A DNA stretch of 64,000 nucleotides from assembly GCA_030272585.1 (NCBI GenBank), contig BSYQ01000011.1, positions 2,790,001-2,854,000 of the forward strand, in the 5' to 3' direction. The position numbers and the translations under genes were made by a program. Source of the DNA: Bryopsis sp. KO-2023. Taxonomy: Eukaryota > Chlorophyta > Ulvophyceae > Bryopsidales > Bryopsidaceae. This document shows, piece by piece, positions 11,473-64,000 of this stretch. Numbering within the stretch: the stretch's first letter is position 1; each line of letters starts with the position of its first letter. The notes under the pieces are model-generated. The model saw only the letters and a program-made list of their open reading frames with translations, had not been told where the DNA came from and ran no database searches.

Positions 11473-12030
11473 TTGTCGGTATCCTCTTTGGCTTGGATTC
11501 AGTCAAGTCTCCCGATCCGGGTTGGTGGTTTGGGTCTTTCGTCTGGGAAGTCTTTACATGCAATTGCATATTTTTCTTCTCTCCATTTCTCTCGTCATCT
11601 TTTGTCGGGTCTTTCGGGTGTTTCTTTTTCGGTGGATCATTCTATGTGGAGCATGGCAGCTGTGCAACTTGACGCGTTTTTGCCGCCGGTTGCTGTTTGC
11701 TCCCCACACGAATGGTTCGAGAAGGAGTTGGTTACTCAAAAGGAACTGTCGTTGTTGGCTGGCCAACGGCGCTGGGATGAATTGTTGCCTTCAGGCCGCC
11801 CAAGGGATGAAGCTCGGTTGCGCAGTTTGACGTTACCATATGCAGGAGCGTTCTTGTCGGCTTTGCCTAACCAAGCTTTGGGCACGGAGTTGTCATCTGC
11901 TGTCTTCAATGTGTTACTTCGGTGGAGGTTGGGTGTTCCTATATATGGTGAGGGGGATCATTGCCCTTTGTGCCATGTGGAAATGGATGTTTTTGGAGAC
12001 CATGCGGTTTCGTGCAATGTGGGCGGTGCA
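11473..12030 (+). pseudogene. LINE relic, piece 1: reverse-transcriptase C-terminus and zinc knuckle
   Basis: An open frame holds the C-terminal part of a non-LTR retrotransposon polyprotein. It has the post-RT motif SSLPIRVGGLGLSSG and a zinc knuckle CPLC-x9-H-x3-C (with GDHAVSC) near 11960-12015. Nothing upstream belongs to it, so the copy is 5'-truncated. The frame is interrupted at 12030 by element A, directly after codons for NVGGA, and resumes at 22371 in the same reading frame. LINE origin is clear; the clade is not determined. Confidence 0.85.
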
Positions 12031-12532
12031 CATACTATGGACGTGATCGGAAATGATCGGCCGTCCATTTTCGATGTCAGGACAGGTCGTTTCACTGATC
12101 TGACCTGACACGATCTCGTTCCACATGATTCTAAAAATGATTGGTTTTTTTTTTTTTTTTTTTACCGATCATGATCGATGATCGTGATCGTGATCGGCCG
12201 ATTAAAACCTGATCGATGATCGTGGTCGGCCGATCAAAGCCTGATCGTGATCGGGATCGGGCTTCCGATTATCGATCTGATCGGCAGCTCCGATCACGAC
12301 CACGATCACGATCAAGCGTCGCGACCTGTCGGCACGTGATCGGTCGATCAAGATCGGTGAAACGCCGATTGATCGGCCGTTGATCCGATCAGCTCCGACC
12401 ATGATCGGCCATGGATCAATTGATCGGAATTAAATTTAAGATTCCGATCATGATCGGTCCCATAATCAATTGATCGGTCAATTGATCGGTTTACGAAAAT
12501 GCCCACAAGTCACCACCCGAAGGTGTTTTTGG

Positions 12533-12608
12533 AGGTGTAAGGATTCGAACCTAGGACCTCACAGATTGGCATCAAGCAAATCAACGCTTAGACCACTCTG
12601 AGCTCCGG
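12533..12608 (-). other. tRNA-like sequence of element A, left copy
   Basis: Read on the minus strand it has an A-box-like CAGAGTGGTCTAAGCG (12600-12585) and a perfect B box GGTTCGAATCC (12551-12541) at normal tRNA spacing. The anticodon arm and T stem do not fold well, so it is tRNA-derived rather than a functional tRNA gene. It points outward from the element centre. It is the inverted partner of the copy at 12690-12761. Confidence 0.65.
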
Positions 12609-12689
12609 TTAGAGTGTGCTCCGTGTCATTATATACCTGATCAGTCAGTCCGACAAACTGAGGTATATAATAACACGGAGGACCTAGTG

Positions 12690-12761
12690 ATCGTGGCACA
12701 GAGTGGTCCAAGCGTTGATTTACTTGATTCCAATCAGTGAGGTCCTAGGTTCGAATCCTTA
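12690..12761 (+). other. tRNA-like sequence of element A, right copy
   Basis: The A-box region gtggcacagagtggtccaag lies at 12693-12712 and the perfect B box ggttcgaatcc at 12748-12758. It is the inverted counterpart of the left copy. The LTR retrotransposon is inserted only a few bases past the B box. Confidence 0.65.
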
Positions 12762-12766
12762 CACCT

Positions 12767-13116
12767 TGTAGTGAATCGCCTGATTCAGAGCCTGCTGGGC
12801 CCTGAATCAGGAGATCTGACTGTAGGTTGGCGAGCTGGCAGCTCAGCAGGTGTCCCTGCTGAACTGGCAGCTCAGAACATTCTGTGATCTGACCTGATAC
12901 AGTGATGGGTTCACTGTGTCAGCTCAGTAGTTGTCTGATCAGGGGATCAGGTCTTGTCAGAGGTGCTGCAGCAGGGTATTTGAGCAGCGCCTCTAGGGTA
13001 TTGGTACACTTGGTTTTAACCTAGCTTTAACCTTGTTTGGAGTGCTTTGCACCTTGGTCTCCCTTTGTTTCACCTTCAGCTTGGCTGGCAGACTTGCAGA
13101 GTCGCAAGCCGTTGCA
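12767..13116 (+). repeat. 5' LTR of the chromovirus
   Basis: 350 bp, starting tgtagtgaatcgcc and ending ccgttgca, the same as 21637-21986. The TG...CA ends and the flanking cacct duplication define the boundaries. Confidence 0.96.
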
Positions 13117-13554
13117 TTGGTTTCGGAGCATTCTTGTGGCAAGATCACAAGTGATCTTGGGAGAAGCAGAGAGTTCTGGTGAAGCAGCAGGCGCAGAGTT
13201 TTCAGGCGCAAGGTTTTTACAGAATCGATCAGGGCGCAGGGTAGCGCTGAGTGCAGGCATAGTTGGCGCAGTTTTCGCACAGTTTTGTGTAGGCGCAGTG
13301 CTGCACAGAGGTCGTTTTGTACGCAAGGTTATAGTAGAGTTTGCAGGCGTTGCCTAGCATAGAACGTTGTCAGGCGCAGGTTTTGCGCAGCAGTAAGGGG
13401 CACAGTTCAGTGCGGGCACAGACGCAGATTTGCGCAGCCTTGAGTGGTAGAGTTTTGTAGGCGCAGGTTTCGCGCAGCAGCAAGGGGGCACAGACGCAGA
13501 TTTGCGCGGCCTGAAGTGTTAGAGTTTGCGTAGCGGAACTAGGGTTGACAGTTG
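13117..13554 (+). other. 5' leader with imperfect GC-rich repeats
   Basis: This is the untranslated leader between LTR and first ORF. A block around ggcgcaggtt(t/c)...gcgcagcag...cacagacgcagatttgcgc occurs twice, near 13371-13440 and 13458-13515. No coding potential is visible. It could hold packaging signals. Confidence 0.55.
13118..13129 (+). promoter_or_regulatory. Primer-binding site TGGTTTCGGAGC
   Basis: This lies one base after the 5' LTR. It resembles the common plant initiator-Met site TGGTATCAGAGC (10 of 12 bases) but would pair with a tRNA ending GCTCCGAAACCA. The same 12-mer follows the LTR at 52453-52659, so the deviation is shared by two elements. Confidence 0.75.
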
Positions 13555-13875
13555 ATGAGCAGTGCGGGCTCAGGTTTTACAGTTGTTAGTTCTGACGAAG
13601 AGGAAGTGTCCTCTGACGGGTTTCCTAGTGAGAATCAGCCAGATCAGACTCGGACTGTACCTGCCTTTGTTTTTAGAGCAGGGCCTATCAGGGAAAACAG
13701 GGTGCAGGAACCACTGAGTCAGGTGGAGGAGAGTTCAGTTTTGGCTCCCTCGCACGATCATTATTGGGTGTTTCGTCAGGGTACTTGGATATATTCTGTT
13801 ACTTGTAGGAATCCGAACTGCCTTCTTTTGTTAGAGTGGCTTGAGAAGGAAAGGATCAGAACTAGCAACCTGTAA
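13555..13875 (+). CDS. Chromovirus accessory ORF a, 106 residues, HxH-x14-CxxPxC motif
   Basis: A small protein of unknown function starting at ATG 13555. The N-terminus is acidic and Ser-rich (SSDEEEVSSDG). The C-terminal third has HDH, 14 residues, then CRNPNC, followed by a hydrophobic/charged helix-like segment LLLLEWLEKER. The next ORF has the same His/Cys spacing, so a small zinc-binding fold is likely. It lies between the leader and gag, in sense orientation. It could be the first part of a Gag precursor made by reinitiation or readthrough; nothing in the sequence decides this. Confidence 0.55.
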   Translation: MSSAGSGFTVVSSDEEEVSSDGFPSENQPDQTRTVPAFVFRAGPIRENRVQEPLSQVEESSVLAPSHDHYWVFRQGTWIYSVTCRNPNCLLLLEWLEKERIRTSNL

Positions 13876-13902
13876 AAGAGATCTTCTGACTCTGGTTGTT
13901 GT

Positions 13903-14385
13903 ATGAGTTTTGGTAGACCTGTAGCAGTGAGAAGTAGTGAAAGTGAGGCAGAAACAGACGAGGAAACTGTGATTCAGGGTGAGGCAGAGTTTCAGGGAAA
14001 CCTGCCACCTGATCTGTTTACTTTCGCAGGGGACTGGGTTCCAGCTCCTTACAGGTTACCCAGACCGGTGCAGGTTCTGGGTCCAGTGAGACACCCGTTG
14101 GCAGTGGTGCCACCACCTCCTCTCAGAGCGCCTCCTCACGGCCACAGAAAGGCAGAACGCAGTGGTAACGTCATCAGATACTACGACTGTTCTGATCCTC
14201 AGTGTCCTATCTACAGATTGCAGAGGGCAACGCAGGAGAGGCGTGAGCAGAACGAGCAGAGGCGTGAGCAGAACGAGCTGAGGCGCAGAAGGAATGTCAG
14301 GCGGGGAGGAGCAGATGGGGGTACCAGCCCCAGATCCTTTCGATCTGCAGGCAATGAGGCAGATGATAACAGATCTGCAGAATGA
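13903..14385 (+). CDS. Chromovirus accessory ORF b, 160 residues, HxH-x14-CxxPxC motif
   Basis: It starts at ATG 13903 and overlaps the gag start by 92 bases. Its N-terminus is acidic and Ser/Glu-rich (SSESEAETDEE), followed by a Pro-rich segment. HGH, 14 residues, then CSDPQC reproduces the spacing of ORF a. The C-terminus is Arg/Glu/Gln-rich with a repeated EQNEQRREQNE pattern. The two proteins look like diverged duplicates. Function is unknown; the domain is predicted to bind zinc, on spacing alone. Confidence 0.55.
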   Translation: MSFGRPVAVRSSESEAETDEETVIQGEAEFQGNLPPDLFTFAGDWVPAPYRLPRPVQVLGPVRHPLAVVPPPPLRAPPHGHRKAERSGNVIRYYDCSDPQCPIYRLQRATQERREQNEQRREQNELRRRRNVRRGGADGGTSPRSFRSAGNEADDNRSAE

Positions 14386-15487
14386 AGTCCTTCACCTGAG
14401 GAATGTTGCTGCAAATGTCAACCATCAGATGAATGATGTTGTGCAGCAGGCTGTGGCAGAAAGGTTGCCTCAGCCACAGGCTCCAGCAGCACTGGGCAAG
14501 GCCAGAGCAAAGACACCTGATGCTTGGTATGGTGACCCTGGTGATATCCCACTGAATGAGTGGCAGGTGCAGTTGCAGACATATTTTGATGTGACAGGCA
14601 CAAGGGATTTAGAGCAGCAGGTTTTAGTGGCTGCAGGATCACTCAGGGGAGCTGCAGGTACTTGGTGGAGAGGCAGATATGAGGCTGCTCTTGCAGGCCA
14701 CCAGGAACTGCCTCAGTCACTTGTTGCTTTGGTTGAACAGCTGAGACAAGAGTTTGGCAAGGTGAACGAGAACCGTGACTTCAGAAGAGAGTGGTCTCGG
14801 TTGCGTCAGGGGCGACTTTCGGTTGCTGAGTATGTACACAAGTTTCGCAGGCTCACACTGCAGATTCATGACAGCAATCCTGGGGAAAAGCTCTTCAGGT
14901 TCATGGAGGGTCTGCACGAGCGTCTGCGGACGAAGGTTGAGATGGAAGATCCCAACACCCTCGAAAGAGCGATCGCGCTGGCGGCGACCTGGGAAGGTCC
15001 TCTTGAAAACTACCACAGAGATCGCAGTCCCAGCAGCAGACGCGCAAGGTCGCGCAGGGACAGATCGAAGAGTCGTGGCAGGTCGTTCAGCAGAGGCAGA
15101 TCCCAGAGCAGAGGTCGCAGTAGCAGTCGAGGAAGGTATAACACCGAACGCGACAGGTACCACCCGCAGCGTCAGGCACCACACTTAGGTGATCGTATGG
15201 AGGTTGATGGCCTCCAGCGTAACCGCGTGGGGTTTGATGTCAGGGAAGGTCGCAGCGGCAGTAGAGGTCGCAGCGGCAGTCGCGGTGGTGATCGCAGTTA
15301 CAGTCGCAGTAAAAGCAGAGGACGCAGTGGCAGTCCTCGCAGACACCAGAGGCAGAGACGAGCAGGAACTGGAGAGGGTTCCTCAGACAGGAGGAGCAGA
15401 ATGGATATGGGCAGATCAGCAGCCCATGTTGATTGTTACAGGTGTGGCAAGAAAGGCCACTTCGCCGCTGACTGCTCGGAAAACTAA
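14294..15487 (+). CDS. gag: Gag protein with SR-rich tail and zinc knuckle
   Basis: 397 residues from ATG 14294. The capsid/retrotransposon-gag domain lies at about 70-235, with the typical WWRGRYEA and LRQEFGKVNENRDFRREWSR segments. Then comes a long Arg/Ser/Gly region (about 243-365) made of SRGRS-type dipeptide repeats. At the end is a CCHC knuckle CYRCGKKGHFAADC. Gag packages element RNA into virus-like particles. An RS domain of this size is unusual in Gag and resembles SR splicing factors. The stop TAA (15485-15487) directly follows GGAAAAC (15478-15484), in the region where pol is open in the -1 frame. Confidence 0.92.
   Translation: MSGGEEQMGVPAPDPFDLQAMRQMITDLQNEVLHLRNVAANVNHQMNDVVQQAVAERLPQPQAPAALGKARAKTPDAWYGDPGDIPLNEWQVQLQTYFDVTGTRDLEQQVLVAAGSLRGAAGTWWRGRYEAALAGHQELPQSLVALVEQLRQEFGKVNENRDFRREWSRLRQGRLSVAEYVHKFRRLTLQIHDSNPGEKLFRFMEGLHERLRTKVEMEDPNTLERAIALAATWEGPLENYHRDRSPSSRRARSRRDRSKSRGRSFSRGRSQSRGRSSSRGRYNTERDRYHPQRQAPHLGDRMEVDGLQRNRVGFDVREGRSGSRGRSGSRGGDRSYSRSKSRGRSGSPRRHQRQRRAGTGEGSSDRRSRMDMGRSAAHVDCYRCGKKGHFAADCSEN
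15472..15487 (+). promoter_or_regulatory. Putative -1 frameshift site at the gag stop
   Basis: The pol frame is open from 15472, the gag frame ends at 15487, and pol lies in the -1 frame. GGAAAAC at 15478-15484 immediately precedes the gag TAA. It is one base away from the canonical GGGAAAC heptamer, which occupies the identical place in the second chromovirus (63647-63653). After slippage both would encode Gly-Lys-Leu-Lys. Confidence 0.55.
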
Positions 15488-18400
15488 AGAGGTCAAGGGC
15501 TGGAGAGTCCCTTGGCCGGAATGAAAAGGTGAAGGAGGACAGAAGAGGAGTGTGGGAGGGCCGGCGTAGCCACCCACACAAGGAGGCTACCATGGGGAGG
15601 GTAGCATCTGTTTCAGGGAAGCAGAACCCGGCAGGTGGTGTGCCTTGTGAAGCCACACCGAAAGGGAAGGTCGGGCGTTTGGAAAACGTTGAATTGGCGG
15701 GTACTCTGCTGGAGGCAGAGTCTCCTGCAAGTAGGTCAGTGGATGAATTGGCGGGTACTCTGCTGGAGGCAGAGTCTCCTGCGAGTAGGTCAGTGGATGA
15801 ATTAGTGGGTGCTGCTGCAGGGGCAGTAGCATCTGCAGGAATTTTGAAGGAGGTTTCCGGGAATGAGGAGGCTGGTCGGTCGAGTGGAACCACCACCTCT
15901 CAGGTCCCTGAGGCAGGAGGTGCAGGGCCAGGCGGGGCCACACCTGACCTGCATGAGTTTTCTGTGCATGTGAGTGCTGACAGTGATCTGAGGGCAGACA
16001 CTGCAGACTCGTTTTCAGTGAGAGAGGAATCTGAGCTGGGCAGACCTAATGAAGTTTGCTTTCAAGGACATAGCTTAGATGAACCCCCACTTTTGAAGTT
16101 GAGAGGAGTCCATGGGGGGACTCAAGGGATGTTGAAGACCACAGGAACTGTGGCAGGTTGTTTTTCTCGAATATTGATAGATAGTGGGGCAACTGACAAT
16201 TTTGTTTCAAAAGATTGGTTGCTTGAAAATGGCATTCAGACAGAAGCTGCTGAGGTACTGACTGAGGTGCAGTTAGCAGATGGTAAAACCTCAGAAAAGG
16301 TAGAAAAAGAGCTGCAGGCCAGTGTCGAAATGGGCAGGTTTGTATCAGAGGAAAAGATGTATGCCATAACACTAGGGAGGTACGACCTGGTGTTAGGAAT
16401 GTCTTGGTTAAGCAAACACAACCCTGTTATAGATTGGCAAAAGAAGTTGTTGGTCTTGCAGACACCTCAGGGAGCAGTCAATCTCAGAATGCAGACTGGT
16501 AGAGTAGAGGATTGCAGTACAGCAGAGTTGGATCTGATGTCTGCAGCAGAGTTCGCACAGGCTGCTCGCAAGGGCAGACCTATGTATTTACTTCATTTGA
16601 GAGAAGTGGATGTTGAGCATGCAATAAATGGATTAGAAAGTACTGAAGCAGTAAAAGGAAGTTTTGCAGATACAGACTCAGAGGAAGAAAGAGAAGCTTT
16701 GCAGTTGGAAAAAGAAATCAGAAAAGAGTTTCAGGATTTGTTCAAAGAAGAACTGCCTCAGGAGTTACCTCCTGACAGAGGTGTTAACCACAAGATAGAA
16801 CTTGTGGAAGGGGCAGAACCAGTAAAGAAGGGACTTTACAGGGCTAGTTTTGCAGAAAGAGAAGAACTGAAAAAGCAGTTGGCAGAGTTGCTGAAACAGG
16901 GTTTTATCAGACCTAGCAAGTCACCCTGGGGATCACCAGTTTTATTCGTTCCAAAGAAAAATGGGAAGTTGAGAATGTGTGTCGATTTCAGGGCACTGAA
17001 TAAACTGACAGTGAAAAACAGGTATCCTATTCCAAGGATTGAGGAGTTGCTAGATCAGATTCAGGGAGCTCGTTGTTTCAGTAAAATAGATCTCTGCTCA
17101 GGTTATCATCAAGTGCGGTTGGACCCTGCAGATTCAGAAAAGACGGCCTTCCGCACTAGATATGGGCTTTTTGAATATGTGGTTCTTCCTTTTGGGCTGA
17201 CAAATGCCCCTGCCACCTTTATGAACACCATGAACCATGTTCTTCATGATTTCTTGGATATTTTCTGCATAGTTTATTTGGATGACATTTTGGTTTACAG
17301 CAGGAATTGGGCTGAACACAAGGTTCACTTGCAGAAAGTGTTGCAGAGACTGAGGGAACAGAAACTGTATGCTTCAGCTACTAAGTGTGATATCTGCAAG
17401 ATGCAGGTGGAGTTTTTGGGGCATGAAGTGAGTGCTGCAGGTATACAGGTGTTGCAGAGCAAAGTGCAGATCATCAGGGACTGGCCTCCCTTAACGTCAG
17501 TGAAGGACCTCAGATCCTTCCTTGGCCTGGCAAATTACTACAGAAGGTTCATCAAGGACTTCTCTGCCAGGGCTAAGCCATTGACTGCCTTGCTGAAGAA
17601 GGAAGCAAGCTGGCAATGGACAGAAAGGGAAGCTGCGTCAATGCAGGATATTAAGGAGGCATTGATGTCTGCACCAGTGTTGTTGGTGCCTGACCCAGGA
17701 TTGAAGTTTGAAGTCACCACTGATGCTTCAGACTACGCTATTGGAGCAGTCCTTACGCAGGACCATGGGCAGGGTCAGCAGCCTGTGGCTTATGAAAGCA
17801 GGAAACTGCAACCTGCAGAACTGAATTATGCTACCCATGAGAAGGAGCTCTTGGCCATTGTACATGCACTCAAGGTGTGGAGGCACTATCTGGATGCTCA
17901 GGAATTTGTGGTGCACACTGATCATGCACCACTGAAGTATCTGCAGACTCAGCCTCAGTTGTCCAAGAGGCAGGCAAGGTGGATGGAGACCTTGCAATCC
18001 TTCAAGTTTGAGATTAAGTACAGACCTGGAAGAGATAATGTGGTGGCAGATGCACTAAGCAGGGCCACACATCAGACTGCAAAGGAGCAGCCTGAAGTTA
18101 ATGCACAAGCAAGATTGGACCTGACCCAGGGATTTCAGGAGGAGGTCAAGGAGGCCTATCAAAAGGATCCTTTATGCAAGCAATTGATTGAGGCAAACTA
18201 CAGACCAGCTCATGTAAAGTGGGATGGTCAGAGGCTTTGGAGAAGGGTTTGCAATGCCTGGAAATGGTGGATACCTGATGCAGACGGGCTCAGGGAGAAG
18301 TTGCTCCATGACTGCCATGAATCAGCATTGGCAGGACATCTGGGCAGACGAAAAACGCTGGTCAGAGTGCAGGCGCATTACTTCTGGCCACGCATTTCAG

Positions 18401-19572
18401 GCACAGTGCAGAAGTATGTCAAGAATTGCATCCCCTGTCAGAGAAATAAGGCTTCTAATCAGAGGCCTTTGGGTAAGCTGCAGCCTCTGCCTATTCCTGA
18501 TGGCAGGTGGTCCAGTGTTTCAATGGATTTTGTAGGCCCTTTGCCTAAAACCAGGAAGGGGTCAGATTATTTGCTTGTGGTAGTGGACAGATTCAGTAAG
18601 ATGTTGCGCTTGATTCCAACCAAACAAACGGTCACTGCAGCAGGTGTTGCAGATTTATTCTTTCAGAATGTAGTTCGTTTCTTTGGGTTGCCTCAAGAGA
18701 TTGTTTCGGATAGAGACAGTCGGTTCACTAGTAATTTTTGGAGAGCTCTGTGGAAGAGAGCAAATACTAGATTGGCAATGTCTAGTAGTTACCCCCCTGA
18801 GACAGACGGGCAGACAGAAAGGGCTAACAGAACTGTGCAGGAGATTCTGCGAAGTTATGTTGAGCCTGCAGGTGCAGATTGGGAAGAGCATTTGGCTGCT
18901 GCAGAGTTTGCTTACAACTCCAGCATCAATGCCACTACAGGGTTCTCTCCCTTTTTCCTCATGTACGGGCAGAATCCCCGAACTCCTGCAAGTGCTGTAG
19001 CAACTACAGCCTGCCCTGCGGTGGATGATTGGTGGACTACTTGGCAGCAAGCTCTGCTTGCTGGCAGAGACAACATTGCTCAAGCTCAGGATCGACAACG
19101 CCAGGTGGCGGATCAAACCAGGCGGGGAGGGGGCTTTGAGCCAGGCGAAAAAGTTTTTCTGGCAACCAAGGACTTACCCCTACCTGATGTGCTGAGCAGG
19201 AAACTAACTGCAAAGTTCTGTGGGCCATTTGAGGTGGTAGAAAGGCTGTCAGAGGTGGCAGTCAGGTTGAGGCTGCCAGGGCATTGGCGAATCCATGATG
19301 TGTTTCATGTGTCCAAGCTGAAGCCTGCCTTTATTGATCAGGAGGGCAGTTTTCCAGCCAGGAGGACACATGCACTGCAGCCTGAACCAGAGCTGGTTGA
19401 GGGGCAAGAGGAATACCTGGTGGACAGGATTCTTGCAGAAAGGACTGTCAGAGGCAGGAAGCAGTACCTTGTCAGGTGGCAGGGCTATGACCAATCAGAG
19501 GATACGTGGGAGCCTGCCAGAAACTTGCGAAACGCACCGGACAAGTTACGTGAGTTTGAGATGAGGAGCTGA
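15488..19572 (+). CDS. pol: Pol polyprotein: protease, RT, RNase H, integrase, chromodomain
   Basis: The continuous frame ends at 19572; the first in-frame ATG is 15592, but expression is more likely by -1 frameshift from gag. Counting residues from 15529, the aspartic protease has DSGATDNF at 218. The RT has LPFGLTNAP and YLDDILVYS near 580. RNase H has VTTDASDYAIGAVL near 730. Integrase has an HHCC finger near 937-973 and a D,D-x-E core: SMDFVGPLP, SDRDSRFTSNFW, TDGQTERANRTVQ. A chromodomain (EEYLVDRILAERTVRGRKQY..WQGYDQSEDTWEP) closes the protein. The chromodomain places it in the chromovirus branch, whose members favour heterochromatin. No stops or frameshifts are seen. An 18-residue tandem duplication lies N-terminal to the protease. 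Confidence 0.96.
15691..15798 (+). repeat. 54-bp in-frame tandem duplication in pol
   Basis: Two copies start at gaattggcgggtactctg (15691 and 15745) and encode ELAGTLLEAESPASRSVD twice, with one silent difference (caa/cga region). A diverged start of a third copy follows (ELVG). Confidence 0.9.
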
Positions 19573-19764
19573 AAGGACTTGGCCAAGCAGAGGTGACAGG
19601 TTGATACCTCTGACAGACTGAATCAACCCCGACAGAAACGGAAATAGGAGTGCAGTATACTGCAGCAGGAAACTGTCTAGCAAGTTACGTGCGCAGAGCA
19701 GGAAGAGAGAAAGAGGAGCCTATCGTTCGAAAAAAAAAAAAAAAAAAAAAAGGAAGGAGTCAAC

Positions 19765-20625
19765 ATGGAACCAGCAAACCAGGCCGCCCTTATCGTCTCA
19801 ACCCCCGCTAGCAGCAGTGAACCAGCAGAGACTGCCCCTGTGGTTATCCCTGCGGCAGCGGTGGAGAAAGCCGACGTGATCGAGGGGGCAGATGAGGTTG
19901 TGGCGTTTGAGGAGGCGGTGCAGGTCCTGCGGAAGAGGGCAGTCGACGTTGCGGAGTTGGAAAGGCTGAGGAGCAAGTGTCAAAAGGTGGAGCAGGAGAA
20001 GTGGAAGCTGCAAGGGTCTCTGAGTGCTGCCGAGAGTGAGCTGAAAGCGTGGCGAGAGTGGGCGAAGAAAATGCCGGTAACGCGGTTGGAGTCCGAAGAG
20101 GAGTTGTCCTTCGGCTTCCTGGACACAGGGCTCCCTGAACCAGAAAAACCTGCAGCAGACCAAAAGAGTGAGATGGAGACGGCGCTGAAAGAAACGGGAC
20201 GTGGCTGTTCGCTTTGCTTCAAGACGGCGAGGTCTCTTGGGGCACCAGTGCGGGAGCTTCCATGTGGGAAGCACCGGGTATGCTGCAGGGACCTCTGTGT
20301 CCAGAGACTCTGGTACGCGCCAGACGTAACGGTGGAGAGGACGAACCCAGACGGGAGCTTGGAGGTGGTTGGACGACTCAGCGGAACGCGAAAGGGGGTC
20401 TCGGTGGATGCGACGAAAGAGTGCGGGCTGTGCAAGCTGCGGGAGCACACGGTCATGGCGCCGAGGGTGCTGACGTCTTTGCGGATTGCGGTCATCAGTC
20501 CACCCCTGCCAACGCAGCCAGCCTCCCCGGGACGAACCAATCGTGACTGCGTGCCGCTTCGAGAGATCCGCTGGAGTGTGCCCGCGCTTGCGCCAAAGAG
20601 GGGCTTGAAACGTCCGGCGACCTGA
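19765..20625 (+). CDS. Extra 3' ORF of the chromovirus: coiled coil plus RING-like Cys/His cluster
   Basis: 286 residues from ATG 19765, in sense, between pol and the 3' LTR, where retroviruses carry env. No signal peptide or membrane segment is visible, so it is not an envelope. Residues 45-100 form a heptad-like coiled coil. Residues 148-178 read C-x2-C-x15-C-x2-H-x2-C-C-x3-C, and ELPCGKHRVCCRDLC looks like a RING core. Another CGLC pair follows at 220-223. RING domains act as ubiquitin E3 ligases, but here the inner spacing is irregular, so activity is inference. It could be a captured host gene. A poly-A run at 19731-19751 just upstream may mark an old retroposed junction. Confidence 0.6.
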   Translation: MEPANQAALIVSTPASSSEPAETAPVVIPAAAVEKADVIEGADEVVAFEEAVQVLRKRAVDVAELERLRSKCQKVEQEKWKLQGSLSAAESELKAWREWAKKMPVTRLESEEELSFGFLDTGLPEPEKPAADQKSEMETALKETGRGCSLCFKTARSLGAPVRELPCGKHRVCCRDLCVQRLWYAPDVTVERTNPDGSLEVVGRLSGTRKGVSVDATKECGLCKLREHTVMAPRVLTSLRIAVISPPLPTQPASPGRTNRDCVPLREIRWSVPALAPKRGLKRPAT

Positions 20626-20685
20626 GGCAGGAATCGACAGGAGGTGTGATCATGGGAGTTGTGACAGGATTTGAATGTGGTTTGC

Positions 20686-20840
20686 TCAGTGTGTTGGAAG
20701 TGGAATTTTTCAGGCAGGGTTAAACCCTTAGGGCTGTCCAGTTTCTGGTGATCAGTGTGTTGGAAGTGGAATTTTTCAGGCAGGGTTAAACCCTTAGGGC
20801 TGTCCAGTTTCTGGTGATCAGTGTGTTGGAGGTGGACAAG
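20686..20840 (+). repeat. 66-bp tandem repeat, two full copies and a partial third
   Basis: The unit tcagtgtgttggaagtgg... starts at 20686 and 20752; a third, diverging copy starts at 20818. It lies in the non-coding stretch between the 3' ORF and the 3' LTR. Confidence 0.92.
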
Positions 20841-21636
20841 GATTTCTTTTGCAGTTTCTGATCAGGTTGAGATGAAAACTCTGAAGTTTGCAACCTGTTT
20901 TTGGTTATAAAAATGGTTCACCTGTTGATACATTGCAAGTCCAGCAGGGGTAAGATGTTATTGCTAGAGAATTCCATGTTTGCAATCTGAAATAAGAGTG
21001 ACTGAATTAGCAAAAGGGGGAGTAAAGAATTGCATGGTGACCTTTGAAGGAAGTCCAGTCAAATGGATTTTTATCTTTGTGAGGTTGGTATTTGTTGCCA
21101 CTGGAGTATGGCTGATTAAAAGGGCAGATACAACAACCTGCATAGGAGTTTTTATTTTAGTTTTGAATGTGGAAATTGGTTGGCAAATCAGTGGCAGAAT
21201 TACAACACTTGAGGGGTTGAAGAATGAGAAATTTGGGTTCTATGTTAGACTGCAGATGGAGTGCAGTGTTTGCTTGAAAGGAGGACTCTGATTTCTATAT
21301 TACAGGTCCATGGATAGTTTGTTGTGCTGAAACATTTTTGTGGGGAATTTGGTCCCTGTGAAAGTTATGGTTGTGTCAGAGTTAGCAATTTCCAGTGGCA
21401 GGACTTGGGATGATTACATTCATTTTTGGACTTGATTATCAGTGACTGAAATCTGAAAGATGTTTTATTTTAATTCAATACATTGGGTTTGGTCTGAGTT
21501 GCAGATATGAGTTTTCATTGGCAGAAGTGTGGACTGGAAGTTATTCACTGATATGGGTTTTCCTTAGCACTTACAGTCTTGGGGTTTTTCCTTTCTAAGT
21601 TGCAGTAGGGGCTACTGCAGTTCAGGTGGGGAGGAA
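20841..21636 (+). other. 3' non-coding region and polypurine tract of the chromovirus
   Basis: No convincing ORF. It ends in the purine tract aggtggggaggaa (21624-21636), which would prime plus-strand synthesis directly before the 3' LTR. Confidence 0.7.
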
Positions 21637-21986
21637 TGTAGTGAATCGCCTGATTCAGAGCCTGCTGGGCCCTGAATCAGGAGATCTGACTGTAGGTTGG
21701 CGAGCTGGCAGCTCAGCAGGTGTCCCTGCTGAACTGGCAGCTCAGAACATTCTGTGATCTGACCTGATACAGTGATGGGTTCACTGTGTCAGCTCAGTAG
21801 TTGTCTGATCAGGGGATCAGGTCTTGTCAGAGGTGCTGCAGCAGGGTATTTGAGCAGCGCCTCTAGGGTATTGGTACACTTGGTTTTAACCTAGCTTTAA
21901 CCTTGTTTGGAGTGCTTTGCACCTTGGTCTCCCTTTGTTTCACCTTCAGCTTGGCTGGCAGACTTGCAGAGTCGCAAGCCGTTGCA
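21637..21986 (+). repeat. 3' LTR of the chromovirus
   Basis: 350 bp, the same as 12767-13116 on reading, followed by the target duplication cacct (21987-21991). Confidence 0.96.
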
Positions 21987-22370
21987 CACCTCCAGAAACA
22001 CCTTCGGGTGGTGACTTGTGGGCATTTTCGTAAACCGATCAATTGACCAATCAATTGATTATGGGACCGATCATGATCGGAATCAATTGATCATGATACC
22101 GATCTGATCGGATAATACGATCCCGATCACGATCTCGATCAAGCGTCGGACCCCGTCGGCACCTGATCGGCAGTTTTTGATCGGCCGACCACGATCAGGC
22201 CGATCAAAAACTGCCGATCAGGTGGGGCGACCGATCTGATCGATGATCAGCCCTGGCAGGTCTGATCGACGACCGATCAGATCGGTGATCGGCCGATCAC
22301 GATCATGATCGGTCTCCCGGTTGATCGGAGACCGATCTGATCGTGATCGGATCCATAGTATGGCGGTGCA

Positions 22371-22844
22371 AGATTGATTCGTCACGACGCTGTTCGTGAC
22401 ACTTTGTTTCAAATTGCTCGATCGGCTGGGGCGCATCCACGCTTGGAGATGCATGTGGATTCTTCGTTTGCGCGCCCGGCGAAGGTTTTCATTCCATTAT
22501 GGCACCATGGTAAAGCATGCGTTGTGGATGTTACGGTTGCTCACCCTTTGCAACAAGCAACGTTGGCGGGTGCTACTCGCGAAGCAGGTGCTGGTTTGCG
22601 TCGTTGTTTGCAGCGGAAGGCAGAGGTGTCGTCACGTTGTCATGAGTTGGGTTTGGACTTTGTTTGCTTTGCGGCCGAGACCTTTGGGGGGTTTTCTTCT
22701 GATTGTCAGCTTTTGGTTCGTTCTTTCTCTCGGTCGTTAGCAATTATTCAACATCTCCCGTTTTCAGTGGTGGTAGAACGGGCATGGCAGCAGCTTTCTC
22801 TTTCTTTGCATCGATCGCAAGGGTTTGCTTTTTTGGAGCGCTGG
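22371..22844 (+). pseudogene. LINE relic, piece 2: C-terminal endonuclease-like region
   Basis: It continues the polyprotein from 12030 in the same frame: after VGGA comes RLIRHDAVRDTLFQIARSAG. The segment RPAKVFIPLWHHGKACVVDVTVAHPL recalls the restriction-like endonuclease region found C-terminal to RT in some LINE groups; this assignment is inference. The frame has no stop up to 22844, where element B interrupts it after LERW. The reading frame was therefore intact when both insertions occurred. Confidence 0.8.
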
Positions 22845-23249
22845 CAGAGCTGGGCAGTAACCCGTTTGTAACGCACCGTACCGTAACGTACAGGGTCGGT
22901 ACAGTAACGTGTCCGGTCGGTGCACGCACCGACCGGACGTTACAACACGTTGCACACGTTACAACAACGACCCAGTCGGTACAACAACGTCCAAGTCCGG
23001 TACAACAACGATCTGACGTTACTGTAACGCCAAAGCGTTGTTGTAATGCAATACGTTATCAGTAACGTCTACATCGGCTGCTGTAACGTCCGCACCGAGG
23101 CAAGACGTTACAACAACGATCGGTTGCGTTACGTGTAACGATAACACGTTACAACAACGGCCAGGTCGGTACAACAACGTAATGACGTTGCAGTAACGTC
23201 ATGTGGATGACGTACAAAGTAACCCCCGTAGGGTCCCCAGAACCCAAGG

Positions 23250-23325
23250 GAACCGAGTGGGATTCGAACACCGTACCGCACGATGCCGAATCATCTACAC
23301 TGAGCGCTAAGCCAAGTAGACCACG
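23250..23325 (-). other. tRNA-like sequence of element B, left copy
   Basis: On the minus strand the A-box-like TGGCTTAGCGC (complement of 23304-23314) and B-box-like GTGTTCGAATCCC (complement of 23259-23271) are correctly spaced. It is the inverted partner of the copy at 23415-23490 and points away from the centre. The stems are degenerate. Confidence 0.65.
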
Positions 23326-23414
23326 ATGATTTTGTGGCTGTTGCGATCATATACCTTAATCTGTTTGTAATTCTGTGAAATTAGGGTATATCATTGCAAC
23401 AACCACAAAATCAT

Positions 23415-23490
23415 CGTGGTCCACTTGGCTTAGCGCTCAGTGTAGATGATTCGGCATCGTGCGGTACGGTGTTCGAATCCCACTCGGTTC
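23415..23490 (+). other. tRNA-like sequence of element B, right copy
   Basis: tggcttagcgc at 23426-23436 (A box) and gtgttcgaatccc at 23469-23481 (B box). It is followed by the hairpin block ggggaccctgcgggggtcac (23502-23521), which is shared with element C. Confidence 0.65.
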
Positions 23491-23815
23491 CCTTGGGTTC
23501 TGGGGACCCTGCGGGGGTCACTTTGTACGTCATCCACATGACGTTACTGCAACGTCCTTACGTTGTTGTACCGAACGTCGTACTGTCTGTGTCGGTACAA
23601 CAACGTCAGTGACACGTTGCAACAACGACCGTTATACGGGTGCCGCCCGTTGGCGACAACGTATTGTACCGACCGGGTACCGATGTTGTACCGTAACGTG
23701 AAAATATCCGGTACCGTACCGTACCGTAACGACCCCTTACGGTACGGTACGGTATGTAACGTGTCGTACCGTACCGTAGGGGGTCGTTACGGTACAGCCC
23801 AGCTCTGAGCGCTAC

Positions 23816-23930
23816 CCCATTCTTGTTGATTCATTTTCTTTTGATAGGGGCTAGACAGTTGTATGTACCTGGGATTTATATTTGTGAATAAAAACGGACA
23901 TGTGTAATCAGCTTCGATCACACCCAGAAC
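23816..23930 (+). pseudogene. LINE relic, piece 3: end of the ORF and start of the 3' UTR
   Basis: After element B the LINE frame resumes (PILVDSFSFDRG...) and ends at a TAA near 23889. A second stretch of the same 3' UTR appears to follow element C, at about 24403-24470, with GTT-rich sequence at its end. Confidence 0.6.
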
Positions 23931-24393
23931 AGTGATAGGACTTTACGGTTACGGTCACCGTAACCGTACCGTAACGCCGTAACCGGACCGTAACCGGAGT
24001 ACAATTTTTGTCGGAAAATCGTACTTTTACGGCCGTAACCGTAGCTCCGTACCGCTCCGTACCGCTCCGTACCGGATCGTAATGACCGTAACGGCCGTAC
24101 CAACCGTAAACCGTAGAAAGTGACCCCCGCAGGGTCCCGCGATTCCAAAAGAACCCAGGGGGATTCGAACCTGCGACCCTACAGACTGCAACCTATCGCT
24201 TTAACACTGAACCACACTACTTCACGATGATTTAGGGCCTGCCGTAGCTATACCGTACCTGTTCCGTACCGTAAAAACAGCATATTACTCCGGTTACGGT
24301 ACGGAGTTACGGCCGTAGTACGGTGACCGTAACCCGACCGTAACCGGACCGGACCGGAGCCGGACCAAAAAATCGGCCCAAGTCCTATCTCTG
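23931..24393. mobile_element. Element C: CCGTAACC-armed element with one tRNA-like core, 463 bp
   Basis: Exact 9-bp target duplications acccagaac (23922-23930 and 24394-24402). Terminal inverted repeats: agtgataggactt at the left against the complement of aagtcctatctctg at the right (one mismatch). Both arms consist of CCGTAACCG, CCGTACC and GGACCGG motifs. The core has one tRNA-like sequence on the minus strand. This is the most compact and best-bounded member of the family. Confidence 0.88.
24120..24222 (-). other. tRNA-like sequence and hairpin block of element C
   Basis: On the minus strand TGTGGTTCAGTGTTAAAGCG (complement of 24197-24216) is close to a canonical A box and GGTTCGAATCC (24171-24161) is a perfect B box. 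CTTTTGG, a possible Pol III terminator, follows at once. Then comes the block whose complement is gtgacccccgcagggtcccg (24120-24139), shared with element B. Confidence 0.7.
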
Positions 24394-24402
24394 ACCCAGA
24401 AC

Positions 24403-59861: not shown

Positions 59862-62800
59862 CTACCTGATCCCAGCTCTCCTCTTATAATCAGCCAGGAT
59901 CTCTGATGCATTCAATAAATTGTCTTGGGGTTCCCATGTTGCTTCACTAAGTGGATACCCCTTCCAGACTACTAAAAATCTTCTTTTCCTTCCTGAAAAT
60001 TTATGTCTTACTACAGCCTCAACTTCAAATTCCTCTTCTCCCTCAGAATCTAATTCTGCTGGAGGTGCCATTACCTCCCTAGGAAACTTAGCACTTTCTT
60101 GAAGTTTCCTTAATTTTGATACATGAAATACAGGATGCATTTTCCATCCATCTGGTAATACCAATCTATATGCAACAGATCCCACTGCAGCAGCAATAAC
60201 AAAAGGCCCTATATATCTTCTTCTGATTTTTGCTGGGATGTGTTTCAAGACTGCTAAATTCAATGTCTTGGTGGAGAGTAATACCTTTTCTCCCACTTGA
60301 AATTGTACATCTCTTCTCCTTTTATTTGCTTGCTGCCTCATCTTCTCTTGGGCTGTTTTATATCTGTTCTTGGCATCATTGATGACTTCCTGCATATGAG
60401 ATATCATCTCTTGTACTGACTCTGCTTCTGCTTGAGCTTTTCCAGCCAGTAGATCCCCTGGTAACTGGGGATGCACTCCATACATCAAGTAAAAGGGACT
60501 GTACCCTGTAGCAGTGTGTACAGCATTGTTGGCTGCAAATTCAGCCATCCCCAAGCCTTGCATCCATGTCTCTGGATGATCCTCAACATAGGGTCTGAGG
60601 AAATTCTCTAAGGTTCTGATACTGACTTCACTCTGTCCATCAGTTTGAGGATGGAAGGCTGTGGACATCCTCACTTTAGTGCCCACACACTTCATTAACT
60701 CCTGCCAAAATTTGCTTGTAAATCTAGTGTCCCTATCACTGATTATCACACTGGGAATCCCATGATTCCTAAAGATGTGATCAAAGAATATTCTTGCATA
60801 CCCTGGTGCATCTATTGTTTTGCTGCAGGGTATGAACTTCACCATCTTAGTCAATCTATCAACAAATACTGCAATGGAATCAAATCCATCAACAGGGGGT
60901 AAATCAGTCACTAAATCAGTAGTGATCTGACTCCATTTCTTATCAGCTACTGGAATAGGTTGCAGCAATCCCTTCTGAGCTCTCAACTCAGGTTTCATTT
61001 GCTGGCAAACCTCACATGTCCTAACATATTCCTGGACATCCTTTTTCATATCATTCCAGTAGTATTTCCTGGACATCAGCTCCAGAGTTCTCTCTATCCC
61101 CAGATGTCCAGAGATCTGATTATCATGTCCTTCAGTAAGGACTTTCATTCTCAGTTCCTGAGGAACCCATAATTTCATAAGTCCATCCTGAGTTTGATAA
61201 ATCAACAACCCTGATTCATTGATTCCATATCCTGGAATTCTTTCCCCATCCAGTATTTGATTGTAGATGTCTTTGATTTCAACATCTGCCAGTGTTGCTT
61301 GCTCCCAGAGTGTAATCTCCTCCACACTAGGTTGTAAGGAGCTCACTACATTCACTTGATTCTCTGCTGGTAAACTTCTTGATAGTGCATCAGCAACCAG
61401 ATTCAGTTTCCCTTGGATGTACTGAATTTTTGGTTTGATGCTGAGGAAATGTCCTGCTCTCAGCCACCTGGCCTGAGGCCTTGACATCATCTTTTGATCC
61501 ATAAAGTTTGTTAGTGGCTGGTGGTCTGTAAAGACTGTGACTTCTCCTGGGCAGCCTTCTAAGTAGTGCCTCCACTGCATCAAACAGTAGGCTATTCCCA
61601 GGAGTTCCCTTTCATACACTGAGTAATTTTGTTCTGATTTTGATAATCTTCTACTGCAAAAGGCTATGGGCTGTAATCCAGAGCCATGATCCTGACAGAG
61701 AACTCCTCCAGTTGCTTCCCCAGATGCATCACTAATCACAGTGTAATCCTTTACTGGATTAGGATGGATCAGCACTGGTTTCCCCATCAATGCAGTTTTC
61801 AGTGTTTGGAAGGCTATTTCCTGAGCAGATCCCCACTCCCACATGACATCCTTCTTAGTTAAGTCATGCAGGGGGCCTGCTATCTTTGCAAAATCAGGAA
61901 TAAATCTTCTATAGAAGGATACCATCCCCAGAAAACTCCTGACATCAGTAACTGTTTTTAAGGGCTTCCAATCCCTGATTGCCTTAACCTTCACATCCAT
62001 TGCTGAGATCCCTTTTTCACTCAACCAAAATCCACAGAAATCTGTTTCCCTCACACAGATTTCACTTTTAGTGGCCTTTGCAAATAGACTATACTTCTGT
62101 AGCCTGGCTAAGACTGCTGCTAAATGCTCTACATGCTCAGAGATGCTCTTAGAATAGATTAAGAGATCATCAATGAAGATCAGCACAAAGATATCCAGCA
62201 TATCCTTGAAGATATCATTAACCATGTTCATGTATTGTGCTGGAGCATTAGTAAGTCCAAAGGAGAGTACTTTGAACTGGTAATGTCCAAATCTGCTCCT
62301 GAAGGCAGTCTTAGGCCTGTCCTCTTCCCTTAGAGGCATCTGCCAGTAGCCTGATCTCAAGTCTATCTTTGTGAAGTATTTTGCCCCATGCACCCTGTCA
62401 ATCATCTCCTCTGGTAAGGGCAGAGGGTATCTGTTTTTAATTGTTTTTTTATTCAGCCATCTGTAATCCAAGCACATTCTGAGCCCTCCATCTTTCTTAG
62501 GGACAAACAGAATAGGTGCCCCAAATGGTGATTGTGATGGTTCAATGAAATCCATCTCCAAAAGGTAATCTAACTGTCTTTTAACCTCATCTAACTCAAG
62601 AGGAGACAGTTTATACAGTGGCCTGTACATGGGTTCAGTACCCTCCTCCAGATCAATCCTGAATTCATGACCCAGCCTGGTAGGAGGTACACCTTTAGGC
62701 AAATCTTTTGCAAACACTTTTCTGTACTGAGTCAGTACTTCCTTAATCCTGGGATCCATATCCTCCTGCAGGATTTTCTGTAGATCATCCCCTTCCCTTT

Positions 62801-63652
62801 GTTCTGGGATTGTTTCTACTCCAGTCTTTGATTCATCCTCTGGCCTAATCACCACCATGATGATGTGTTTGATTTCCCCTTTTTCTATCTGTCTTTTGAT
62901 TCTGCCACTAGAACAAAAGGAAAGTTCTGTAGCTCCAGTGGGCTTGAGATGATATTCAGGCATCACTGAGAGTGGTAATTTTACACTCTTTCTGCCCTTG
63001 TTTATTGTGATTATTCCTGACTTAAAATCCACTTTGGGATTGTAGTGTATGAGCCAGGGCAATCCCAGCAGGATTGGGTGATTACTGTCTGGGAAGACAT
63101 CAGCATCAAATGAGAGCTGGATCTTTCCACAGACAAAAGGGATGCCAAAACATCTCCCCACTGATTTCCTTTCTGTACCATCTAGAAACTTAACAGGAGT
63201 TTCTTGTGGTTTGTATTGCAGTCCTAGTTCCTTGACTGCATCCATGCTAATATAATTAGCAGTGGATCCTGTGTCAATGTATGCTGTAGCTTTCTTTGCA
63301 CCAATAAATCCTGCCAGTTCATATCCTCTATATGCTGCTGTAGCCTGAGCTACTGCAGTCTGAACTGGTTCCTTTCCCTCAACATTTCCTTCCACTCTAG
63401 TGGGTAAACTCACAGTGGCCTCTGTTTGTTCATCCACTCTCTTTTGAGACTGCTTTTTCTTTTGAATTAACACTCCTGGAGTGACCCCATCCAGTGTGTT
63501 TGCTTCCTGTTCTGTTGCAATAGGGGCTGCAACCACAGGTGTCTCTTGAACACCATCATTTAGTGAGGCTGGTGTTTTTGTAGTGGGTTCTTTAATTTCA
63601 ATATCATCTGGAGGCTTAGCTGACCCAACACTAGCCTCCTCTTTTAGTTTCC
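59862..63652 (-). CDS. pol: Pol polyprotein of the second chromovirus
   Basis: One frame, open from about 63731 to the stop at 59862, translated after a -1 shift at 63647-63653. Numbering from 63731, the protease has YIDTGSTANY near 152. The RT has FIDDLLIYS near 515. RNase H has SDASGEATGGVL and the YERELLGI segment. Integrase has an HHCC finger (HLGIERTLELM...CEVCQQMK) and a D,D-x-E core with VIISDRDTRFTSKFW and HPQTDGQSEVSIRTLENF. A C-terminal chromodomain (FEVEAVVRHKFSGRKRRFLV..WKGYPLSEATWEP) ends the protein. No internal stops, so the copy may be recent. It differs clearly in sequence from the pol at 15488. Confidence 0.95.
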
Positions 63653-63653
63653 C
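63644..63653 (-). promoter_or_regulatory. Canonical -1 slippery heptamer GGGAAAC at the gag stop
   Basis: On the minus strand the gag frame reads AAG GGA AAC TAA. G GGA AAC fits the X XXY YYZ rule and is followed immediately by the gag stop. Pol continues in the -1 frame with CTA AAA GAG. Confidence 0.75.
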
Positions 63654-64000
63654 TTCTTCAGGGCTTTCTGAGCTTGGGACAGTTTGGGACACTGTCTCAC
63701 CCCATGCTCTGTGCTTCCACATAGAAAACACTTAAAGGATCCTCCCCTTGAGGGTCTAGATCCCATCTGACCTCTCTGTTGCACAGCTTTAACTGAGTTT
63801 GCTGCAAGAGGTAGTTGTGGTGTTGCAGCAGCTATCACTGCCGACATCTGTGTATTCCTTTGTCCAAATCTTCCCCTCCCTCTACCTCTGCCTCTAAAGC
63901 TGCTAGTAGTGCCACCTCTACTGCCTATAGTTGCAGAGAGTCTTTGAACTGTGAGGATGGCCTTATCCAGATCCCCATCACACAGGGTCATAACCTGTGC
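63644..64000 (-). CDS. gag: Gag C-terminus of the second chromovirus (partial)
   Basis: An Arg/Gly-rich segment (RGRGRGRGRFGQRN) is followed by a CCHC zinc knuckle CFLCGSTEHGVRQC. It ends KKGN at TAA 63646-63644. The N-terminal part lies beyond the window. It lacks the SR repeats of the Gag at 14294. Confidence 0.85.
   Translation of the reverse strand, partial: AQVMTLCDGDLDKAILTVQRLSATIGSRGGTTSSFRGRGRGRGRFGQRNTQMSAVIAAATPQLPLAANSVKAVQQRGQMGSRPSRGGSFKCFLCGSTEHGVRQCPKLSQAQKALKKGN

What the first reader, a model, noticed from the sequence alone, without database searches (positions are those of the whole stretch)
12031..24393. A family of non-coding inverted-repeat elements with tRNA-like cores and 9-bp target duplications
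Three elements (A, B, C) share one design and differ in sequence. Outermost are short terminal inverted repeats and 9-bp flanking duplications (A ggcggtgca exact, C acccagaac exact, B 7 of 9). Then come arms saturated with an element-specific short motif. At the core are tRNA-like sequences with A and B boxes, two divergent in A and B and one in C, always pointing outward. The 9-bp duplication suggests mobilisation by a Mutator-type transposase. The tRNA-like core suggests Pol III transcription through the arms, giving structured RNAs. I know no named element class with this combination.
Basis: partly seen in the sequence, partly recalled or inferred. Interest (0 to 1): 0.88.

Follow-up and report, generated by a model that had tools for sequence, protein, structure and literature searches.

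The report
Jumping genes with tRNA-like promoter cores
Three short 'jumping genes' in what looks like a green-alga genome appear to borrow the enzymes of different hAT transposons and carry, where the enzyme gene should be, one or two outward-facing tRNA-style promoters; related designs in further hAT families suggest the promoters may do something for the transposon.

Summary
The elements are real and mobile, but they are hAT elements, not Mutator. TSDs are 8 bp, not 9: exact in 23 of 30 A, 20 of 30 B and 15 of 16 C copies; a ninth base matches at chance rate, 29 of 116. The A target site exists empty in six other copies of the host repeat. hAT elements with the same ends lie in the genome: A matches a 6.2-kb element, C a 5.0-kb one, and B's end lies near a hAT exon. 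The motif-rich arms are therefore probably transposase-binding repeats (inference). The core replaces the transposase gene with outward tRNA-like modules that keep a TATA-like site, A box and B box but no recognisable tRNA. The genome holds 247 divergent box pairs, reversed control 0. Families A2, D and, weakly, E share the design and have hAT partners. Cores form two classes, weakly related if at all. The hAT identity is near certain; whether the promoters help or are passengers is open (about 45:40). Nearest precedent seen: MER6, a mariner MITE with an inserted SINE. New variant of a known kind.

The parts
12023..12030 (.). left 8-bp TSD of A (gcggtgca)
   Evidence: repeated at 22363-22370; empty site in six other copies of the target repeat
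12031..22362 (.). element A, TIR CATACTATGGA...TCCATAGTATG, interrupted at 12767-21986
   Evidence: left 438 bp 88% to the 3' end, right 245 bp 84% to the 5' end of the hAT element g1
12541..12551 (-). A core, B box of the left module (A box 12585-12595, TATA-like 12628-12637)
12748..12758 (+). A core, B box of the right module (A box 12704-12714, TATA-like 12664-12671)
12767..21986 (+). nested Ty3-type LTR retrotransposon inside A, identical 350-bp LTRs, TSD cacct
   Evidence: not part of the original element
22363..22370 (.). right 8-bp TSD of A (gcggtgca)
22837..22844 (.). left flanking 8-mer of B (agcgctgg)
   Evidence: 6 of 8 matches to 23808-23815
22845..23807 (.). element B, TIR CAGAGCTGGGC, 963 bp
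   Evidence: left arm 299 bp 94% to a terminus 821 bp from a hAT exon (g5)
23260..23269 (-). B core, B box of the left module (A box 23305-23314, TATA-like 23348-23355)
23471..23480 (+). B core, B box of the right module (A box 23426-23435, TATA-like 23387-23394)
23808..23815 (.). right flanking 8-mer of B (agcgctac)
23922..23929 (.). left 8-bp TSD of C (acccagaa)
23930..24393 (.). element C, TIR CAGTGATAGGAC/CAGAGATAGGAC, 464 bp
   Evidence: right 108 bp 99% to the end of the hAT element g2
24161..24171 (-). C core, single B box (A box 24205-24214, TATA-like 24248-24254)
24394..24401 (.). right 8-bp TSD of C (acccagaa)

Best explanation
A, B and C are non-autonomous hAT transposons, each the partner of a different hAT family of the same genome (g1, g5, g2), whose transposase most likely moves it in trans. 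The transposase recognises the short CA...TG terminal repeats and the arrays of short motifs in the arms, excises the element and inserts it with an 8-bp duplication. In place of the transposase gene each carries one or two tRNA-derived, outward-facing type-2 Pol III promoters (TATA-like site, A box, B box) that no longer read as a tRNA. Shown by sequence: ends, TSDs, an empty site for A, matching hAT partners, promoter geometry, recurrence in further families (A2, D, weakly E). Inferred: mobilisation in trans, transposase binding to the arms, Pol III or TFIIIC occupancy, any benefit. My choice for the role (about 45%): the module is kept because TFIIIC/Pol III occupancy keeps the small element accessible or unsilenced for the transposase. 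The confidence given is for the identity, not for the role.
For: 8-bp TSDs: A 23 of 30, B 20 of 30, C 15 of 16 exact, with pyrimidine at position 2 (16/20, 17/20, 14/14 distinct TSDs) and purine at position 7 (18/20, 18/20, 12/14). Empty site of A in 6 other copies at 96%. PF05699 hAT domain: 150 matches scored of 185 candidates, many in long open frames. g1: C1:1604186-1610393, same TIRs, TSD CCTGTACT exact, 788-codon open frame with the hAT domain, shares both ends with A, core not matched. g2: C5:208340-213329, TSD TCCAGGAC exact, right end shared with C, hAT domain. g5: B's TIR and following bases 821-878 bp from the hAT exon at 4 of 5 copies checked. A2 with g3, D with g8, weakly E with g9. 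247 divergent pairs, control 0. Between the A-type and B/C-type cores the boxes and tail are 68% identical against 34% for the rest; 1 of 182 shifts reaches that. TATA-like site to A box 38-40 nt in seven modules of A, A2, B and C, 40 nt in a real tRNA-Ile gene.
Against: A's TIR (CATAC) departs from the hAT start I recall (YARNG). 7 of 30 A, 10 of 30 B and 1 of 16 C copies had no exact TSD, and the copies were picked as best matches, not at random. The g3 copy's own flanks do not match; the far ends of g5, g8 and g9 were not found. No transposition, binding or RNA data. Box constraint within families is weak: shifts as low, inside the core 251 of 427 (A), 15 of 430 (B), 8 of 219 (C); over the whole element 832 of 1130, 138 of 962, 51 of 463. 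The core does not track the transposase tree. The motif boundaries were chosen after seeing the alignment.
Confidence: 0.88

Rival explanations
1. Passenger model: tRNA-derived SINE-like sequences dropped into internally deleted hAT elements and spread with them, without any use for the element.
For: Precedent MER6, in which a SINE inserted into a mariner MITE (passages of PMC6887750). Cores lost the tRNA fold. No box constraint within A, weak in B and C.
Against: The design recurs in A, A2, B, C, D and weakly E, each with a hAT partner, with two core classes weakly related if at all. Orientation: among the 100 B boxes listed I count 14 divergent, 0 convergent and 1 tandem pair under 300 bp; the 247 pairs come from a pattern that seeks divergent pairs only, and no convergent pattern was run. 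Boxes and TATA distance persist while the rest diverges.
Confidence: 0.4
2. Outward Pol III transcription through the arms makes structured or double-stranded RNA that feeds or decoys small-RNA silencing.
For: B has no TTTT between either B box and the element ends; A2 and D have none on one side.
Against: TTTT runs are not significantly depleted on the 9 arms tested: lowest P 0.05 for one B arm, and both A arms and one A2 arm have more than the shuffles. Only 2 of 10 real tRNA genes here have a TTTT within 40 nt, so termination rules are unknown.
Confidence: 0.12
3. Mutator-type elements with 9-bp TSDs.
For: Nine bases match at A and C in the window.
Against: Across copies the ninth base matches at chance rate (29 of 116); the partners found are hAT. 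Mutator transposases were not searched for.
Confidence: 0.02
4. Genuine tRNA genes carried as cargo.
For: Perfect B boxes, A boxes and TATA distance as in a real tRNA gene of this genome.
Against: No tRNA by ARAGORN, or by Rfam at E up to 5 and 10 where given, with 10 of 10 positive controls for ARAGORN.
Confidence: 0.02

Closest known systems
Non-autonomous hAT elements / hAT MITEs (e.g. Mar of Drosophila, PMC3517528, passages seen)
   Same: 8-bp TSD, 11-bp TIRs beginning CAG, no coding capacity; that paper also says MITE interiors are often unrelated to the parent
   Different: The interior here is a Pol III promoter module, paired and outward in A, A2, B, D and E, with long motif-array arms; the word tRNA does not occur in the Mar text
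MER6/MER6A (mariner MITE with an inserted V-SINE, PMC6887750, passages seen)
   Same: SINE-type sequence inside a DNA-transposon MITE that then spread
   Different: One Tc1/mariner family with TA TSD; the text has 'pol III' 0 and 'palindrom' 0 times and centres on the V domain, not on promoters
tRNA-derived SINEs (recalled)
   Same: tRNA-like head with A and B boxes
   Different: Fixed 8-bp TSD, TIRs and DNA-transposon ends; the promoters sit in the middle
Mutator (MULE) (recalled)
   Same: TIR element with a TSD of similar length
   Different: TSD 8, partners found are hAT

Membership tests
hAT superfamily (non-autonomous member) | 8-bp TSD | tested here: met
   23/30 A, 20/30 B, 15/16 C exact; one D copy CACACTAC exact; one A2 copy gtatcaag; E not determined
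hAT superfamily (non-autonomous member) | short TIRs shared with an element that encodes a hAT transposase | tested here: met
   A-g1 and A2-g3 both ends matched; C-g2 right end 108 bp and both TIRs; B-g5 and D-g8 one end; E-g9 weak
hAT superfamily (non-autonomous member) | TIR start YARNG (recalled) | tested here: inconclusive
   B CAGAG and C CAGTG/CAGAG fit; D CAGAC, E CAGTC and A CATAC do not fit fully
hAT superfamily (non-autonomous member) | mobilised by the hAT transposase | not testable with these tools
   needs a transposition assay
MITE | short, non-coding, many near-identical copies with TIR and TSD | tested here: met
   consensus 1131, 963 and 464 bp, 1.9-3.1% mean divergence from consensus in 20 A, 15 B and 15 C copies; first-look candidates 170, 491, 491, of which 40 each were scored
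tRNA gene | cloverleaf recognised by tRNA models | tested here: not met
   positive control
SINE | Pol III promoter with A and B boxes | tested here: met
   sequence match only, in A, A2, B and C; D and E have no good A box by eye; transcription not tested
SINE | retrotransposition hallmarks (variable TSD, 3' tail at the element end; recalled) | tested here: not met
   fixed 8-bp TSD and TIRs
Mutator | 9-bp TSD (typical, recalled) | tested here: not met

The most novel reading that the evidence does not exclude
Outward Pol III promoters are a selected working part of hAT non-autonomous elements: up to six hAT families of one genome each gained such a core, possibly at least twice from separate tRNA-derived sources, because TFIIIC/Pol III occupancy makes the element a better transposase substrate or shields it from silencing.
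Probability: 0.3. Interest if true: 0.82.

Novelty: new variant of a known kind. Interest (0 to 1): 0.6.

Why it matters
MITE interiors are usually treated as meaningless filler. Here several hAT families of one genome have small partners whose interior is a Pol III promoter module, often a divergent pair. If useful, it would show that non-autonomous elements can carry a chromatin or transcription device that decides which of them spread, and it makes that testable by mutating two ten-base boxes. If not, it is still a case of one promoter module riding on several transposon families.

Tried and rejected
Mutator and a 9-bp TSD: rejected. Real tRNA cargo: rejected. miRNA-family hits of Rfam in the arms and cores: below the gathering score and explained by hairpins. 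Depletion of TTTT in the arms as a sign of read-through: not significant, and 8 of 10 real tRNA genes here lack a TTTT within 40 nt. The B-box-pair pattern in viral contigs gave 2 records; the sequence around them looks like ordinary tRNA gene pairs and no convincing element ends were found. Co-divergence of cores with transposases: not supported; g5 (B) and g9 (E) are the closest of four transposase domains (37 of 61) but their cores are 46% identical, while B-C is 57% and D-E 84%. g3 and g8 domains were not fetched, so this rests on four domains. Solitary B boxes: 5 of 20 sampled on C1 lie in these families, 15 do not, 0 are called tRNA; of the first eight B boxes on C1, five are C copies. 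Stronger constraint on boxes within families: weak in B and C, none in A. Protein searches: g1's transposase has 2 relatives at 39% identity among the candidates scored, unnamed; a window ORF had 1, unnamed. The search for B box plus tail hairpin did not complete. The target repeat of A was recognised as a retroelement by eye only; its Pfam scan failed and was not repeated.
Full report
What is there. Element A runs 12031-22362, B 22845-23807, C 23930-24393 (checked). A is split by a Ty3-type LTR retrotransposon (12767-21986; LTRs identical over 350 of 350 bases, TSD cacct), so A proper is about 1.1 kb. A sits in an open frame of a repeat that I take by eye for a non-LTR retroelement; no family scan of it succeeded. 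Joining A's two flanks with one copy of gcggtgca gives a 160-base query that matches six other places of the genome at 96% across the junction (four over all 160 bases, two over 1-158), besides the two halves in the window. That is a clean empty site. B seems to lie further on in the same repeat (the frame stays open up to it); its empty site was not searched.

Target duplications. I examined 30 A, 30 B and 16 C copies: for A and B the 30 best of the matches listed, for C ten from the top plus six met elsewhere. Exact 8-bp duplications: 23, 20 and 15; A has one more with one mismatch. Three A pairs share a TSD, probably segmental copies (20 distinct). Rest: A six (three with no TIR pair in the fetched stretch, among them the window's own copy, whose TSD is exact when read in the window, and three without TSD), B ten (the window's copy 6 of 8), C one (nested in A). 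Cross-copy control: 0 of 696, 0 of 812, 0 of 238. A ninth base matches in 29 of 116 cases, the chance rate.

Partners. The hAT dimerisation domain has 150 scored matches of 185 candidates here, many in long open frames. g1 (C1:1604186-1610393) has A's TIRs at both ends, TSD CCTGTACT exact, a 788-codon open frame with the hAT domain and a second, convergent open frame of 517 codons without Pfam match. A's left 438 bp match one end of g1 at 88%, its right 245 bp the other at 84%; the core between finds no match in g1. g2 (C5:208340-213329) has C's TIRs at both ends and TSD TCCAGGAC exact; C's right 108 bp match at 99%. B's left arm matches at 94% over 299 bp a terminus 821 bp from a hAT exon, g5; at 4 of 5 g5 copies checked, of 6 listed, that TIR lies 821-878 bp from the domain. 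The other end of g5 was not found. Two other hAT families, g4 and g6, have A-like TIRs at one end (g4 with one mismatch).

More families. A second A-like element, A2 (L079, TSD gtatcaag), matches both ends of hAT g3 (265 bp 95%, 380 bp 87%); the g3 copy's own flanks do not match each other. D (one copy in L098, TIR CAGACCTGGGC, TSD CACACTAC) matches one end of hAT g8 over 188 bp at 82%, TIR exact. E (L099) has only a right end in hand (CAGTCATGGGC), like the end of hAT g9 by TIR (one mismatch) and short motif matches; its left end and TSD are unknown. C is found nested in A and in E (TSD attgggaa). The genome has 247 divergent pairs of ten-base boxes 180-210 bp apart, reversed pattern 0; of the 50 pairs listed I class, by reading the printed text and counting a few variants with their nearest type, 20 as A2, 15 B, 7 D, 5 A, 2 E and 1 other.

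The core. In A, A2, B and C a TATA-like site lies 38-40 nt before the A box (A 40, A2 40, B 39 on both strands, C 38), and 40 nt in a real tRNA-Ile gene of this genome (L107). Then follow A box, B box and a short hairpin tail. D and E have a TTAAA site at the like place, no good A box by the consensus I recall, and another tail. Similarity without the B box, against shuffles: A-A2 z 28, D-E z 27, B-C z 11, A or A2 with B or C z 3.9-5.5; the first class with D or E z -0.6 to 3.7, where A-D and A2-D are reached by 1 and 2 of 300 shuffles and four of the eight pairs by 85 or more. So there are two core classes, weakly related if at all. ARAGORN and Rfam find no tRNA in them although ARAGORN finds 10 of 10 real ones (six Ile, four Lys). 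Between A-type and B/C-type cores the boxes are better kept than the rest. Constraint within families is weak.

How it works. Shown: hAT ends, TSD, empty site of A, partners. Inferred from hAT biology: transposase binds TIR and subterminal repeats; the abstract of PMC4763223 says subterminal repeats matter for Kat1, and that of PMC10368747 that the Hermes octamer contacts its left end through several BED domains (listing). Inferred: Pol III or TFIIIC occupancy. TATA-like boxes at -31/-24 with A and B boxes are known in Pol III genes (start of the abstract of PMC10137851). I put a helping role at about 45% and a passenger role at 40%.

Host. 91.1 Mb in 28 contigs, a 356,152-bp contig with 56% GC in a 201-base sample and a 91,672-bp contig with 28 and 35% in two short samples suggest a Bryopsis green alga; Bryopsis hypnoides has a 408,555-bp mitochondrial genome of 57.9% GC and a chloroplast genome of 30.66% GC (passages of PMC11852573). 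That Bryopsis sp. KO-2023 fits in size is recalled.

Novelty. Seven paper searches listed no description of hAT elements with paired Pol III cores; the library lacks most subscription journals, and I saw passages of five papers only, otherwise listings. Closest: MER6 (PMC6887750).

Noticed in passing
G000:C5:2779182-3768604: Runs of high-scoring tRNA genes spaced about 3 kb apart on C5, like tandem arrays; the two read in this stretch are tRNA-Ile (TAT).
   Followed up: partly
G000:C1, 20 solitary GGTTCGAATCC sites (L127-L146): 15 of 20 solitary B boxes lie outside the families and are not called tRNA, though the reversed 11-mer occurs only 8 times in the genome against 1726 for the B box; three (L128, L129, L140) look like another tRNA-like family.
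   Followed up: partly
G000:C1:1604186-1610393: The hAT element g1 has a second, convergent open frame of 517 codons with tandem PPNMFRAAEAGGRG-like repeats and no Pfam match.
   Followed up: partly
window 19765-20625: An extra 286-aa ORF with Cys motifs lies downstream of pol inside the LTR retrotransposon.
   Followed up: no
window 59862-63731: A second Ty3-type pol ORF of 1289 aa on the minus strand (type judged by eye).
   Followed up: no
L007, L008: A repeated short tRNA-like sequence with GGCA/TGCC ends, followed by a T run in L008.
   Followed up: no
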